This document shows positions 9,837 to 31,718 of a stretch of 64,000 nucleotides of DNA, piece by piece. The DNA is from Rubrivivax gelatinosus. Its GTDB lineage: Bacteria; Pseudomonadota; Gammaproteobacteria; Burkholderiales; Burkholderiaceae_C. The notes beneath the pieces are model-generated. The model saw only the letters and a program-made list of their open reading frames with translations, searched no databases and had not been told where the DNA came from. How positions within the stretch are numbered: the stretch's first letter is position 1; every line of letters begins with the position of its first letter. Position numbers and translations under genes: made by a program. Where the stretch lies: assembly GCF_004340905.1 (NCBI RefSeq), contig NZ_SLXD01000009.1, positions 62,001 through 126,000 on the forward strand, in the 5' to 3' direction.

Positions 9837-10128
9837 CGGGGGTGCGCGGCGAAGGGAAGGCGGCGACACGAGCGTCGTGCGCCGGGTGCGCGAGCGCGGA
9901 TGGCGCTGCCAGCGGCCGGGCGGCGGCCGGTGGGCCGCGGCGGGGGGAAGGGGCGCCGCGCCAGGGGGTGGCGGCGCGCCGCGGCGTTGCCGCGGGCCCC
10001 GGGGCCATCCATTTTGAGGATGGACGGTCATTGTAGGTGTGGGCGCCGCGTTCGAGGCCGGCTGTGGCCGCGAGGGGTGGGCCTGCCCTCACCCCGGCCC
10101 TCTCCCGCGAGCGGGAGAGGGAGACGGG
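9837..10128. other. Intergenic region upstream of dctQ
   Basis: These 292 bases separate the alpha/beta hydrolase gene from dctQ, both on the minus strand. The first two thirds are extremely G/C-rich and open in several frames on both strands, but none shows protein-like composition or a homologous motif. The part next to the hydrolase stop holds one copy of the short palindromic repeat (10086-10121). I see no convincing sigma-70 promoter for the TRAP operon. Confidence 0.6.
10086..10121 (+). repeat. Short palindromic intergenic repeat, copy A
   Basis: A CCCTCACCCC head is followed by a perfect 11-bp inverted repeat (CCCTCTCCCGC at 10098-10108 and GCGGGAGAGGG at 10111-10121). Two more copies lie at 10319-10356 and 23894-23926. 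Located just after the hydrolase stop, it could fold in the transcript and act as a 3' end stabiliser or weak terminator. Elements of this sequence class are scattered in many GC-rich proteobacterial genomes. Confidence 0.85.
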
Positions 10129-22147: not shown

Positions 22148-22150
22148 AAG

Positions 22151-22178
22151 AAGAAGGCCGCCCGAGGGCGGCCTTCTT
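22151..22178 (+). terminator. Rho-independent terminator of the RND operon
   Basis: A perfect 12-bp stem (AAGAAGGCCGCC / GGCGGCCTTCTT) closes a four-base CGAG loop four bases after the pump stop. The pyrimidine-rich 3' arm and following TTCC supply the weak-pairing tail. Because the stem is symmetrical it would work on both strands. Confidence 0.85.
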
Positions 22179-22307
22179 CCTGGTGCGTGGGTATCGGGCC
22201 GTGCTGGGGCGCACTGCGCGCCGATGACTTTGACGGCATCCCTCTCGGCGCTGCGTGCGCTTGAGAGAATCAGCGGCTGTACTTCTTGATCCGCCCCTCC
22301 CGACCGC

Positions 22308-24882
<2,575 letters not shown>

Positions 24883-24890
<8 letters not shown>

Positions 24891-26151
24891 GCTGCTTCCG
24901 CGAGGCTGGCGAGAGCACTCGTTTGGCGATCTGTGCGAGCGAGTGGTCAATGGCGGGACGCCATCGACCGATGTTCCGTCGTACTGGGGCGGTAAGACTC
25001 CGTGGGTGACTGGCGCAGACTTCACTACGCACGGGATAGGCGAAATCCGGCGCTTCGTGACGGACCTCGGTATTCGATCAAGCCCCGCTTCCGTGGTCAG
25101 GGCGGGTAACTTGCTAGTGGTCACCAGGACGGGGGTTGGAAAGCTGGCCATCGCGCCATTTGACATCGCAATCAGCCAGGACGTTACCGGCGTCTACCTC
25201 GATCGAACTCGTGCCGATGTGGGGTTCGCCTATCACCTTCTTTCTCGCGAGCTTGAGGAACTGAAGAAGCTGAACCAGGGCACCAGTATCAATGGCATCG
25301 TCCGCTCGGATCTCGAGGGGCACCTGGTTCGCATCCCCGGCAGCCTGCGGGAGCAGCAGCGTATCGCCGCGATCCTCGCCAGCCTCGACACCGCCATAGA
25401 AGCCACCGAAGGGCTGATCGAGAAGCACAAACAGATCAAGGCCGGGCTGATGCACGATCTGTTCACGCGGGGAGTGGACGATACGGGACACATCGGGCCG
25501 GCGGCCCAAAATCTCCCGATGGGCTGGCGGTGGGTCCCACTGGGCCAACTCGCCCAGATCGTCAGCGGCGTGACGCTGGGAGGCAAGGGGCCGGAAGCCG
25601 GTGTCACCGTGCCTTACCTCCGCGTGGCCAACGTCCAGGACGGTTATCTTGATCTCGCCGAGGTCAAACCCATCTGTGTTCTGCCCTCCGTGCTCGAGCA
25701 GCTGCGACTGCTGCCGGGCGATGTCCTGATGAATGAAGGTGGTGACTTCGACAAACTTGGTCGAGGCACGGTCTGGGGCGGTGAAATCGAGAACTGCATT
25801 CACCAGAATCATGTCTTCCGTGTGCGTACCAATCGAGCTTCGCTGTTGCCGGAGTACCTGGCTTTCCACTCCGAGTCCGCATACGGCAAACGCTACTTCT
25901 TGATCAGTTCCAAGCAGTCGACGAATCTTGCGTCGATCAACGCAACGCAATTGCGCAACTACCCGATCGCTTTGCCGCCGCTTGATGAGCAGGCGCGAAT
26001 CGTCCAGCAGATCAGTGCGGCCAACGCATATCGGCTTGGGCTGGGGCGCGCCATCGAAAAGCTCCGCATGCAGAAACAAGGCCTGATGCAAGACCTCCTC
26101 ACCGGCAAAGTCCGCGTGCCGCTGCACGAGCCCGAACCCGCCGTCGCCTGA
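24883..26151 (+). CDS. hsdS: Type I restriction-modification specificity subunit
   Basis: A 422-residue HsdS that sets the bipartite DNA target of the complex. Two target-recognition domains (about 8-155 and 215-365) are each followed by a helical spacer. The spacers are visible repeats: [20 protein letters not shown] with [13 protein letters not shown], and [18 protein letters not shown] with [15 protein letters not shown]. The first domain has [16 protein letters not shown], a common HsdS opening. The start ATG at 24883 overlaps the hsdM stop. Base composition is clearly less GC-rich than in all neighbours, with many codons ending in A or T, as expected for specificity genes that are often swapped between strains. 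Confidence 0.94.
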
Positions 26152-26165
26152 GCCACACTCCGGCC

Positions 26166-27730
26166 ATGCCCGCCACGCTGCCGATCAAGCTCGACGACCT
26201 GCTGCAGCAGCGCACGGTCGAAGGTGAGCGCATCGAATACAAGGCCGGCTGGAACCCCGACGCCGTGCTGCGCACGCTGTGCGCCTTTGCCAACGACTTC
26301 GCCAACCTGGGCGGCGGCTACGTGGTCATCGGGCAGGACTGCGACGCCGCTGGCCGCCCCATCTTCCCGCCGGCTGGCCTGGCCGAGAACCAGCTGGACA
26401 GGATCCAGCGCGAGCTGCTCGCGGCCTGCCAGCTGATCCAGCCGCCTTATTTCCCGCTGCTGAGCGTGGTGCAGGTGCAGGGCCGCCACCTCATCGTGCT
26501 GCAGGCGCCTGGCGGCATGAACCGGCCCTACAAGGCGCCGGCGTCCGTGGCGGCCAGACACAAGAGCTGGCACTACTACATCCGCCGCTACAGCAGCACC
26601 GTCGAAGCCAAGGGCGAGGACGAGCAGGAACTGCTGGGCCTGGCGGCCAACGTGCCCTGGGACGACCGGCTGGCGCAACAGGCCCGGGTGGAGGACCTGT
26701 CGCACCCGCTGATGCTGGCGTACCTACACGAGGTGGGCAGCGCGCTGGCCGACGATGCCTCCGGCCTGTCCCTGGCCGAACTCGGGCGGCAGATGAACGT
26801 GGTGGGCGGGCCCAGCGAAGCGCCCTGGCCGAAGAACGTGGGGCTGCTGTTCTTCAACGAAGCGCCGGACCGTTTTTTCCCCTGCACCCAGATCGACGTG
26901 GTGTGGTTCCCCGAGGGTGCCGGCGGCGACCGCTTCGACGAAAAGACCTTCAAGGGCCCGCTGGCGCGCATGACGCGCGAGGCGCTGGCCTACATCCAGC
27001 GCAACTACCTCACCGAAACCGTGCTGAAGCACCCCGACCGGGCCGAAGCCACGCGGGTCTGGAACTTCCCCTACGTGGCCATCGAAGAGGCTTTGGTCAA
27101 CGCCGTCTATCACCGTTCGTACGAAGAGCGCGAGCCGGTGGAGGTGCGCATCAGCCGCGACGAACTGGCGATCCTGAGCTTTCCCGGGCCCGACCGATCC
27201 ATCCGCCTGGCGGACTTCGAGGCCGGCCGGGCCGTGAGCCGGCGCTACCGCAACCGCCGCATCGGCGAGTTCCTGAAGGAGCTGCAGCTCACCGAAGGGC
27301 GCAGCACCGGTGTGCCCAAGATCCTGAAGGCGATGGCTGCCAATGGCTCGCCGCCGCCGGTGTTCGAGACCGACGACGACCGGGCGGCGTATGTGATCCG
27401 GCTGCCGGTGCACCCGCTGGCGCAGGCGGCGGCGCCCGAAGTCACCGGGGAAGTCACCGGGGAAGTCACCGGGGAAGTCACCGGGGAAGTCACCGGGGAA
27501 GTCGCTCGCCTGCTGCGGGCCATCGTCGGCGAGATGTCTCGCCAGCAATTGCAGGATGCACTGGGCCTGCGCCATGAAGACCACTTCCGTGCAGCCTACC
27601 TGGGGCCCGCGCTGGCCAGCGGCTGGATGGCCATGACCTTGCCCGACAAGCCCCGCAGCAGCAGGCAGCGCTACCGCCTCACGGACCAGGGCCGCCAATG
27701 GCTGCAGGCGCACCCGGCCGGTGACCCGTC

Positions 27731-27734
<4 letters not shown>
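26166..27734 (+). CDS. AlbA_2 / GHKL-ATPase protein, RecG-like regulator family, in RM locus
   Basis: A 522-residue accessory protein. Residues about 12-135 form an AlbA_2 (Schlafen-type) domain: EGERIEYKAGWNPDAVLRTLCAFANDFANLGGGYVVIGQD. Residues about 290-415 resemble the C-terminal HATPase_c_4 domain of COG2865 proteins (YVAIEEALVNAVYHRSYEEREPVEVRI, GRSTGVPKILKAM). A spacer of five EVTG units comes next (12-bp DNA repeat), then a winged-helix end (LQDALGLRHEDHFRAAYLGPALASGWM). Such proteins are often called transcription regulators or ATP-dependent helicase-like, but their function is unproven; they recur beside type I RM genes. It lies 14 bases after hsdS and overlaps hsdR by four bases, so it is made with the complex. 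Confidence 0.85.
27438..27503. repeat. 12-bp tandem repeat, 5.5 units, inside the AlbA/ATPase gene
   Basis: Five perfect copies of GAAGTCACCGGG plus half a copy. It is translated as repeated Glu-Val-Thr-Gly between the ATPase and the winged-helix domain. The identity of the copies at DNA level points to recent slippage. Each unit adds four residues without changing frame, so copy number would alter only the linker length. Confidence 0.95.
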
Positions 27735-30992
<3,258 letters not shown>

Positions 30993-31003
<11 letters not shown>

Positions 31004-31718
31004 TGCCGTACCCATCATCCGCAAGGTGAAGGACATCGAGTACCGCCTGCTGCCCGGCACGGCGCGCCAGACCACCGACATCGTCATCGAGCGCGACGGT
31101 TGTGTCACCGTGCGTCCACCCGCGCGCATGACGCCCGAGCAGGTGGACGAGACCGTGCTGAGCCGCAGGCACTGGATCTACCGCAACCTGGCCGAATGGC
31201 GCGACCTGAACGCCACGCGTGTGCTGCGCGAATGGGTGAATGGCGAGAGCTTCCTGTACCTGGGAAGCGCTTACCGCCTGTTGCTGGTGATGGAGCAGGA
31301 CGCGCCCTTGAAGCTGAAGGACGGCCGCTTCTGCCTGCTGCGCAGCGTGGTGGAACAGGGCGGCAAGACGGCCGCTCAGGACGCTTTCCGCGACTTCTAC
31401 GTCGCCAGAGGCCTGGCGCGCCTCGCCCTGCGAGTCGAGCACTTCGCGCCGCGCGTGGGCGTGCAGCCGGGCCCGTTGCAGGTGAAGGATCTGGGCTACC
31501 GCTGGGCCAGCAGCCTGCCTGGCGGAGGCCTGCACTTCCATTGGAAGTGCCTGATGGCTCCGCCCAAGATCACCGACTACATCGTCGTGCACGAGCTGTG
31601 CCACATGCACCACCGCGATCACACCGACCTCTTCTGGAACGAGGTGGACAAGGTGATGCCGGACTACCGCGAGCGCAAAGCGTGGCTGCGGCAGCGGGGG
31701 GCCGGGATGGATCTGTAG
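30993..31718 (+). CDS. YgjP-like M48/DUF45 zinc metallopeptidase
   Basis: A 241-residue protein of the YgjP (DUF45, SprT-like) family. The zinc site is intact: HELCH at 200-204 and the third ligand and tryptophan in HRDHTDLFWNEVDKVMPDY. Family proteins resemble wss1/SprT proteases, but the natural substrate is unknown. It overlaps the hsdR end by 11 bases and is the last gene of the RM operon. Members are repeatedly found next to hsdR in other genomes, which suggests a part in controlling or clearing the complex; that is inference. It converges on the sugar ABC ATPase gene. Confidence 0.88.

What the first reader, a model, noticed from the sequence alone, without database searches (positions are those of the whole stretch)
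26166..27734. AlbA_2/ATPase protein translated with the restriction complex
This gene sits between hsdS and hsdR with 14-base spacing and ATGA overlap. It has an AlbA_2 domain, a GHKL-like ATPase region and a winged helix. It is not a standard RM subunit. Coupled translation with HsdR suggests a stoichiometric role, such as control of restriction, an added abortive response, or nucleic-acid sensing.
Basis: partly seen in the sequence, partly recalled or inferred. Interest (0 to 1): 0.6.

Follow-up and report, generated by a model that had tools for sequence, protein, structure and literature searches.

The report
Schlafen-type defence gene with swappable tail
Inside a bacterial restriction operon sits a gene that probably makes an RNA-cutting anti-phage protein; it looks like an interchangeable passenger rather than a restriction subunit, and its DNA-binding-type tail, joined by a 12-base tandem repeat that is rebuilt in each lineage, is exchanged between relatives, which could be a bacterial way of reshuffling what an immune protein recognises.

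Summary
Observation confirmed: 26166-27734 encodes SLFN_AlbA_2 + HATPase_c_4 + winged helix (Fic-like_C), 14 nt after hsdS, ATGA overlap with hsdR. Interpretation partly supported. It is unlikely to be a stoichiometric subunit: of 79 rows (window plus 78 of the 80 best relatives kept), 20 lie in type I operons, 38 do not, 21 could not be judged, with at least 11 changes of state on the tree. In 18 loci of the same HsdR family, the gene before hsdR is this or another AlbA_2/ATPase gene (6), something else such as DarT/Macro, FitA/PIN, YhcG or Fic (9), or hsdS itself (3). So it is cargo in a known slot (PrrC and DarTG2 are published precedents). The first domain matches the SAMD9 tRNase domain and Schlafen nuclease lobes, and the Schlafen ExxxxExK motif is invariant in 79 of 79; best reading: an abortive tRNA/RNA nuclease. 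New here: 75 of 80 genes carry a perfect 12-bp array before the winged helix, with 24 unit peptides but a constant period; the winged helix is exchanged between otherwise near-identical proteins and shared with DUF4062 and Fic proteins. All functional steps are inferred.

The parts
22308..24890 (+). hsdM (860 aa)
   Evidence: N6_Mtase E 2.8e-100, HsdM_N; PADLOC MTase_I
24883..26151 (+). hsdS; most likely ATG 24883, 8-nt overlap with the hsdM stop (mechanical ORF starts at GTG 24829)
   Evidence: Methylase_S, two stretches; start read from sequence
26166..27734 (+). the gene of the finding (here 'X'): SLFN_AlbA_2 - HATPase_c_4 - tetrapeptide array - Fic-like_C winged helix, 522 aa
   Evidence: AlphaFold2 model mean pLDDT 82.6
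26220..26609 (+). AlbA_2 / Schlafen-like domain (residues 19-148)
   Evidence: Pfam; VIA-align Z 12.5 to the SAMD9 tRNase domain 9o0d (rmsd 3.0, 151 aligned), Z 6.4-9.5 to Schlafen 5/11/12/13/14 chains, first unrelated row Z 5.1
26220..26243 (+). E19xxxxE24xK26, the Schlafen ExxxxExK motif
   Evidence: E19, E24, K26 in 79 of 79 sequences; motif definition from PMC12215978 passages
27135..27383 (+). HATPase_c_4 (GHKL-like) match; N-box-like EExxxNAxxHR at residues 307-317 just upstream
   Evidence: Pfam; E307, E308, N312, A313, H316, R317 in 79 of 79
27438..27503 (+). perfect 12-bp tandem array, 5.5 copies of GAAGTCACCGGG, coding (EVTG)n; low-confidence linker in the model (residues 424-441 pLDDT < 50)
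27498..27683 (+). Fic-like_C winged helix (residues 445-506), the exchanged tail
   Evidence: Pfam; 4rgl Z 12.8, rmsd 1.2 over 71 residues; exchange
27731..31003 (+). hsdR (1090 aa), ATGA overlap with X
   Evidence: HSDR_N, SWI2_SNF2, TIGR00348
30993..31718 (+). YgjP-like metallopeptidase gene, overlaps hsdR; recurrent at this place
   Evidence: PF01863 E 1.9e-50; same order in relatives

Best explanation
X is a self-contained, modular anti-phage effector carried as interchangeable cargo in the hsdS-hsdR gap of a type I operon. Its N-terminal Schlafen/SAMD9-type AlbA_2 domain is most likely a metal-dependent tRNA/RNA nuclease that stops translation when activated (inferred). The GHKL-like domain most likely gates it with ATP (inferred). 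The C-terminal winged helix is the variable recognition or docking module (inferred from its exchange): it hangs on a probably disordered linker made of a 12-bp tandem array, whose copy number differs in whole 4-residue steps and near which the tail has been replaced by recombination (shown by comparison between species, not within a strain). In the operon it shares expression with the restriction enzyme and would act as a second, abortive layer if restriction fails, as PrrC does (inferred); the same family also occurs without any type I system nearby, so the trigger need not be the restriction complex.
For: Accessory, not subunit: 20 type I / 38 not / 21 undetermined of 79 rows, at least 11 changes of state on the tree, AU test rejects one origin of the M-S-X-R arrangement; in 18 loci of the same HsdR family the place before hsdR holds X or another AlbA_2/ATPase gene in 6, other genes in 9 (DarT/Macro, FitA/PIN, YhcG twice, Fic and others) and only hsdS in 3. 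More distant relatives with the same tail lie in operons of other type I subfamilies: DUF4062 version M-S-X-R-YgjP (L169), AlbA_2 versions M-S-X-R-YgjP (L172), M-S-X-R (L173), R-X-S-M (L174). Nuclease: ExxxxExK invariant in 79 of 79; SAMD9 tRNase domain Z 12.5; of the 20 best rows 18 are named DIP2311, RecG-related, SAMD9 or Schlafen and 2 only 'DNA/RNA binding protein'. Modular tail: for 33 of 38 pairs (8 of 11 pairs without shared members) with 90% or more identity over residues 1-415, the winged helix is less alike than any of 32 windows elsewhere; 24 of 79 have their best winged-helix partner outside their best N-part partner; wHTH data reject the N-part sister pair in 4 of 6 tests; N-part data reject the wHTH pair in 2 of 3 finished tests; versus six remote proteins the core is 26-32% but the tail 45-69% identical. 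Array: 75 of 80 genes, 24 unit peptides, 73 of 75 longer than 95% of synonymous resamplings; 60 perfect arrays (59 of period 12) in 127 kb of X genes against 4 in 1.23 Mb outside, none of those of period 12; in 15 close pairs (sharing members) without tail change, all linker differences are multiples of 4 residues.
Against: No activity is shown here for any member. ExxxxExK and the AlbA_2 fold are also seen in other bacterial AlbA_2 proteins (L005, 2kyy), and SLFN5 is reported to have the fold without nuclease activity (PMC12215978 passage). The third acidic position of Schlafens is only partly kept (residue 58 acidic in 64 of 79, residue 60 in 77 of 79). The canonical GHKL DxGxG box is not seen. 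The wHTH AU tests for L062/L074 (p 0.14) and L036/L046 (p 0.098) and the N-part test for L052/L053 (p 0.12) do not reject; the pairs were chosen after seeing the data; 3 of 11 independent pairs show no excess divergence of the tail. Copy-number differences are between species or bins, not within a strain. The identity step lies near nt 1260-1320 and is not resolved to the array itself.
Confidence: 0.62

Rival explanations
1. PrrC-like guard: X is held inactive by physical contact with the HsdM/S/R complex and released when a phage anti-restriction protein disables it.
For: Same operon position and same predicted kind of activity as prrC, which is embedded in the EcoprrI operon, sequestered by the complex and released on T4 infection (PMC3874165 passages; PMC2610378 passages). 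Repeated insertion next to hsdR or hsdM, often with ATGA overlap, in unrelated type I subfamilies.
Against: 38 of the 58 classifiable rows have no type I operon around the gene, so a dedicated type I silencer in cis cannot be general (action in trans is not excluded); the tail varies even between closely related type I-linked copies (L036/L046).
Confidence: 0.2
2. X is a transcription regulator of the operon: the winged helix binds the hsdM promoter and the AlbA_2/ATPase part senses nucleic acid.
For: The tail has a MarR-like winged-helix fold (Z up to 10.9); Pfam names the C-terminal domain of the remote relative DIP2311 a transcriptional regulator domain; an imperfect inverted repeat lies at 22209-22260 upstream of hsdM.
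Against: X is mid-operon with 14 nt before it, and many relatives stand alone; E19/E24/K26 are kept in 79 of 79, which a plain DNA-binding regulator would not need; at the comparable EPEC island a dedicated small repressor, RptR, regulates the promoter (PMC12255303 passages).
Confidence: 0.1
3. X is a stoichiometric subunit or brake of the restriction enzyme.
For: Operon position and ATGA overlap.
Against: Occurs in many loci without type I genes; the same HsdR family has hsdS directly before hsdR (L153, L161, L163) or other cargo in 12 of 18 loci.
Confidence: 0.04
4. The 12-bp array is a neutral by-product: slippage in an unconstrained linker, and the tail simply evolves fast instead of being exchanged.
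For: The linker is modelled with very low confidence, as disordered stretches are; units differ freely between lineages (24 kinds).
Against: The best array has period 12 in 74 of the 77 genes with any array of period 4-60; arrays are about 145 times denser here than in the neighbouring 1.23 Mb; tail and N-part data conflict, and tails are more alike between remote proteins than their cores, which fast evolution alone does not give.
Confidence: 0.2

Closest known systems
PrrC anticodon nuclease in the EcoprrI type IC operon
   Same: Predicted tRNA-cutting suicide effector embedded among hsd genes
   Different: PrrC has an ABC-type ATPase and a different nuclease domain, and its orthologues were described as invariably linked to type Ic loci (PMC2610378 passages); X is Schlafen-type and often unlinked
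[quoted passage not shown]
   Same: Same gene order hsdM-hsdS-cargo-hsdR-metallopeptidase; authors call the place a potential recombination hotspot
   Different: Cargo is a toxin-antitoxin pair; in the window it is a single AlbA_2/ATPase gene; no rptR-like gene was looked for in the window
[quoted passage not shown] preprint, seen only as a reference entry)
   Same: Same domain order
   Different: Those passages describe BREX context; array and tail exchange are not mentioned in the passages seen
SAMD9/SAMD9L and Schlafen 11-14 nucleases
   Same: AlbA_2 fold (Z 12.5, and 6.4-9.5); ExxxxExK spacing as in Schlafens
   Different: Eukaryotic, other sensor domains; the SAMD9 triad is spaced differently (E184/E196/D241, PMC11221667 passages)
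EcoR124I / EcoR124II HsdS TAEL repeats
   Same: 12-bp coding repeat, 4 residues per unit, copy number changes the distance between domains (PMC3874165 passages)
   Different: In HsdS, helical, sets the gap of the recognition site; here in a probably disordered linker of another protein with 24 different units
DIP2311 (3lmm) and the Nitrosomonas RecG-related protein (2kyy)
   Same: AlbA_2 fold; 3lmm also covers the ATPase part (Z 19.8, 359 aligned, rmsd 13.7 for the whole model)
   Different: No function known from the calls; DIP2311 has another C-terminal domain family in Pfam (PF22168)

Membership tests
SLFN_AlbA_2 (PF04326) | Score above curated cut-off | tested here: met
   43.4 bits against cut-off 25.3, residues 19-148
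Schlafen/SAMD9-type nuclease | AlbA_2 nuclease-lobe fold | tested here: met
   Domain model pLDDT 84.8; 9o0d Z 12.5, Schlafen chains Z 6.4-9.5, unrelated rows from Z 5.1
Schlafen/SAMD9-type nuclease | ExxxxExK motif | tested here: met
   E19, E24, K26 in 79 of 79; definition
Schlafen/SAMD9-type nuclease | Third acidic site residue | tested here: inconclusive
   Acidic at position 60 in 77 of 79, at 58 in 64 of 79; structural equivalence not measured
Schlafen/SAMD9-type nuclease | RNA/tRNA cleavage | not testable with these tools
   needs biochemistry
Type I RM subunit | HsdM, HsdS or HsdR domains, present in all loci of the system | tested here: not met
   no Hsd domain; 12 of 18 loci of the same HsdR family have no AlbA_2/ATPase gene before hsdR
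PrrC | ABC-type ATPase | tested here: not met
   no ABC or P-loop ATPase match at E up to 0.1 in Pfam, NCBIfam or PADLOC; whether these libraries hold a model named PrrC was not checked
Embedded cargo gene of a type I locus (rlo-type) | Gene between hsdS and hsdR, interchangeable with other genes in relatives | tested here: met
Fic-like_C (PF21247) tail | Score above curated cut-off | tested here: met
   85.9 bits against 27; 4rgl rmsd 1.2 over 71 residues
GHKL ATPase | N-box and canonical G1/G2 boxes | tested here: inconclusive
   HATPase_c_4 above cut-off; N-box-like residues invariant; canonical DxGxG not seen; part of 345-380 modelled with low confidence

The most novel reading that the evidence does not exclude
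X belongs to a family of bacterial immune effectors that diversify by exchanging their recognition tail at a self-renewing 12-bp minisatellite. One winged-helix cassette, joined by an array of constant 12-bp period but freely changing sequence, is passed among different killing modules (Schlafen-type AlbA_2, DUF4062, Fic), and array copy number tunes the reach of the tail in 4-residue steps. Type I operons are one recurrent landing place of this family. It would be a domain-shuffling system for innate phage recognition in bacteria.
Probability: 0.42. Interest if true: 0.8.

Novelty: new variant of a known kind. Interest (0 to 1): 0.6.

Why it matters
Embedded abortive genes in type I loci are known, but what makes such effectors recognise particular phages is mostly open. 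A family in which the effector and ATPase stay almost constant while the tail is swapped and the linker length steps by whole repeats points at the tail as the specificity element, gives natural pairs for swap experiments (L037/L053, L063/L068, L073/L087), and offers a sequence signature (perfect 12-bp array before a winged helix) with which more such effectors can be sought.

Tried and rejected
Stoichiometric subunit: judged unlikely. Single origin of the M-S-X-R arrangement: rejected by the AU test. ABC-type ATPase as in PrrC: no hit. Operator just upstream of X: no inverted repeat in 26100-26200. Strain-level copy-number variation in E. coli: no match of the L109 gene or of the L033 tail in E. 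coli genomes, so not testable there. Plasmid and phage collections: 4 plasmid and 5 phage records with X relatives at the limits used. Literature: no paper in the held library contains TPQVTPQV, TGEVTGEV, TPEVTPEV, TDQVTDQV or GEVTGEVTGEV; 'Schlafen + type I restriction + AlbA' gave one pAgo paper; 'COG2865 + restriction' four; 'bacterial Schlafen + phage' one; a slot search one.

Failures and corrections: a whole-genome background for arrays was not possible, so flanks of fetched loci were used. In one search my motif filter wrongly dropped 27 of 79 rows and the script stopped; redone with a profile. In one search my gene caller took the wrong strand for L157 and missed several hsdS and hsdM genes; one search found them (hsdS directly before hsdR in L153, L161, L163). 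My 'Fic' profile was seeded with L180, which turned out to be an AlbA_2/ATPase protein, so its Fic label on L172, L178, L180 and L219 is not trusted. The N-part test for L055/L063 did not finish.

L079 (broken gene) was left out of all alignments and, but counted; L080 was left out of alignment A2. 21 of 79 rows had under 3 kb of flank on a side and no Hsd gene seen, and were left out of the linkage count. L037 (HsdR homologue 4.6 kb upstream) and L085 (weak HsdM-like hit) were counted as not type I. L092, L093 and L098 were counted as M-S-X-R although their contigs end before hsdM/hsdS. Linkage states were set by hand. 71 of 91 chosen neighbour proteins were scanned (left out: repeats of near-identical loci, very short ones and most Hsd genes already known). 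Of 20 places, three (G034:C250, G133:C83, G056:C182) were not looked at further.

Full report
WHAT IS THERE. The ORF at 26166-27734 is real and is as described: 522 aa, 14 nt after the hsdS stop, ATGA overlap with hsdR. Pfam gives SLFN_AlbA_2 (19-148), HATPase_c_4 (324-406) and Fic-like_C (445-506). The operon is hsdM-hsdS-X-hsdR-ygjP. hsdS most likely starts at ATG 24883, overlapping the hsdM stop by 8 nt.

IT IS CARGO, NOT A SUBUNIT. With profiles for HsdM/S/R built from these loci and a simple gene caller, the 79 rows of alignment A2 (window plus 78 of the 80 loci) fall into 20 inside or abutting type I operons, 38 without, and 21 with under 3 kb of flank and no call. The 20 are 13 of the window's M-S-X-R order (three of them cut off upstream), 5 of a different R-S-X-M order, one R-M-S-x-x-X (L053) and one X-S-M (L077). 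On the tree of residues 1-415 the type I state needs at least 11 changes and the M-S-X-R state 7; a single clade for M-S-X-R is rejected (p-AU 8e-82). Apart from Hsd and YgjP genes and shadow ORFs, the largest other families around the gene are found in 8 of 80 loci. Among 71 neighbouring proteins scanned (of 91 chosen), the families shown include type I methylases, RhuM, TOTE primase, McrBC, BrxL, AbiEii-like AAA_21 and SNF2 proteins, but also housekeeping proteins such as HSP70, a glycyl-tRNA synthetase subunit and PrmA (only the first 25 families are listed by each call).

The reverse test starts from HsdR. Matches at E 1e-200 or better occur in 11 of 370 class genomes and 8 of 148 relatives, the window's genome counted in each. 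The other 17 loci were fetched. What stands before hsdR in the 18 loci: X in 2 (window, L157); other AlbA_2/HATPase_c_4 genes in 4 (L152, L164, L166, L167); other genes in 9, namely FitA-like RHH + PIN (L154), DarT + Macro (L155), YhcG (L165, L168), Fic (L162), PIN_3 + HTH_17 on the opposite strand near a contig edge (L160), Trypsin_2 (L159), a protein without Pfam match (L158), and a split hsdS with an IS630-like HTH ORF (L156); and hsdS directly in 3 (L153, L161, L163). Close kin of X share the gap with YhcG (L046) or RhuM (L098). This is the published picture of the slot: DarTG2 between hsdS and hsdR, followed by a metallopeptidase gene, in EPEC, called a potential recombination hotspot (PMC12255303, passages), tgvAB (PMC11411939, passages) and prrC (PMC3874165, passages). 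Four-nt overlaps also join X to upstream non-Hsd genes in loci without type I genes (L043, L052, L074, L088), so the overlap itself says little.

WHAT THE PROTEIN LOOKS LIKE. An AlphaFold2 model from 79 sequences has mean pLDDT 82.6, with residues 424-441 under 50. The N-terminal domain modelled alone (pLDDT 84.8) matches DIP2311 (Z 13.2), the SAMD9 tRNase domain (9o0d, Z 12.5, rmsd 3.0, 151 aligned), 2kyy (Z 12.0) and chains of Schlafen 5, 11, 12, 13 and 14 (Z 6.4-9.5, most above 8); the first unrelated row has Z 5.1. The Schlafen motif ExxxxExK (defined in PMC12215978, passages) is present as E19xxxxE24xK26 and invariant in 79 of 79. SAMD9L needs its equivalent site for antiviral and translation-blocking activity (PMC11221667, passages). 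Motif and fold also occur in other bacterial AlbA_2 proteins, so they support but do not prove a nuclease. Proteins of the same domain order are described around BREX loci as Schlafen RNases with a minimal histidine kinase and wHTH (PMC12839542, passages), which cites a 2025 preprint on bacterial Schlafens in anti-phage defence that I saw only as a reference entry.

THE ARRAY. Of 80 genes (window plus 79 loci), 75 carry a perfect period-12 array of at least two copies; over all periods from 4 to 60 the best array has period 12 in 74 of the 77 genes that have one, starting at codons 376-542 (median 427). The unit peptide differs between lineages (24 kinds, for example TGEV, TPQV, TMEV, TDQV, TTQE, GQDN), so the period is kept while the sequence is not. 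In 73 of 75 the perfect stretch is longer than in 95% of synonymous resamplings with the gene's own codons, so it is the DNA that has been homogenised, not only the protein. Perfect arrays of three or more copies and 30 bp or more number 60 (59 of period 12) in 126,795 bp of X genes and 4 in 1,227,517 bp outside, none of the latter with period 12. In 15 close pairs without tail change, which share members, the linker differs by 0, 4, 8, 12 or 16 residues and by nothing else; two Marinomonas genes almost identical otherwise differ by 24 bp there. A published parallel is the 12-bp TAEL repeat of EcoR124 HsdS (PMC3874165, passages).

THE TAIL IS EXCHANGED. In 33 of 38 pairs with at least 90% identity over residues 1-415 the winged helix is less alike than the lowest of 32 windows of equal length elsewhere (median 65% against 83%); of 11 pairs without shared members this holds in 8; DNA identity steps down near nt 1260-1320 of the gene in the exchanged pairs. 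L073 and L087 are 93% identical in the N part although L087 carries another kind of winged helix (HTH_24) and L073 the Fic-like_C kind; 9 of 79 lack the Fic-like_C kind. For 24 of 79 the best winged-helix partner is not the best N-part partner. wHTH data reject holding N-part sisters together in 4 of 6 tests; N-part data reject wHTH partners in 2 of 3 finished tests. The pairs were picked after inspection. Against six remote proteins the picture inverts: core 26-32%, tail 45-69% identical. Three of these six have DUF4062 in place of AlbA_2, one of them (L033, seen with flanks as L169) in the hsdS-hsdR gap of another type I subfamily. In the plasmid collection the tail was found in 12 records, of which 8 are annotated Fic family protein; of 9 records fetched, 4 have an annotated type I gene next to it; L180 has an HsdR-like ORF as well by my profile, and L178 and L180, annotated as Fic, hold AlbA_2 and ATPase matches. 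In an even sample of 397 phylum genomes the tail family occurs at 32 places in 27 genomes; of 30 fetched, 5 lie with at least two Hsd genes, 17 do not, 8 have short flanks. One of the 5 (L221) is the contig of L046.

HOW IT MOST LIKELY WORKS. Shown: gene content, cargo behaviour, predicted fold, invariant motif, array, exchange between species. Inferred: an activated AlbA_2 domain cuts tRNA or other RNA and halts the infected cell; the GHKL-like domain gates it; the winged helix recognises or docks to a variable partner. Whether the type I complex itself silences X (as with PrrC) is open; the many copies outside type I loci argue against that as a general rule.

NOVELTY. Embedded cargo in type I loci, and Schlafen-ATPase-wHTH proteins, are known. 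The constant-period, variable-sequence array and the tail exchange across effector types were not found in the literature available here, which holds no bioRxiv preprints and lacks most subscription papers.

Noticed in passing
window 23906-23927 (inside hsdM) and 10085-10106: A 22-bp REP-like element (GCCCTCACCCCGGCCCTCTCCC) lies in frame in hsdM (peptide [12 protein letters not shown]), in a stretch of variable length among relatives, and has an identical copy elsewhere in the window; 2 matches found where 0.02 are expected. L068 hsdM has a different insert in the same stretch.
   Followed up: partly
window 30993-31718: A YgjP-like metallopeptidase gene overlaps hsdR and keeps this place in many relatives of the operon and, as an M48-family peptidase gene, in the published EPEC island; its role in type I loci is not explained.
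   Followed up: partly
window 26259-27380 (X residues 32-405): PADLOC's pAgo model PDLC02394 and two short-pAgo-associated (Aga_SIR2) models match parts of X, in line with published Schlafen-AlbA_2 fusions of some long Argonautes (PMC6299218 passages).
   Followed up: no
L152 6058-8079: A HATPase_c_3 protein sits next to another AlbA_2/HATPase_c_4 gene in the hsdS-hsdR gap: possibly a two-gene ATPase system.
   Followed up: no
L178, L180: These AlbA_2/ATPase proteins are annotated 'Fic family protein', perhaps only because of the shared Fic-like_C tail.
   Followed up: partly
window 22150-22179: Perfect 14-nt inverted repeat between the upstream efflux gene and hsdM, followed by an imperfect one at 22209-22260; terminator- and operator-like, not tested.
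   Followed up: no
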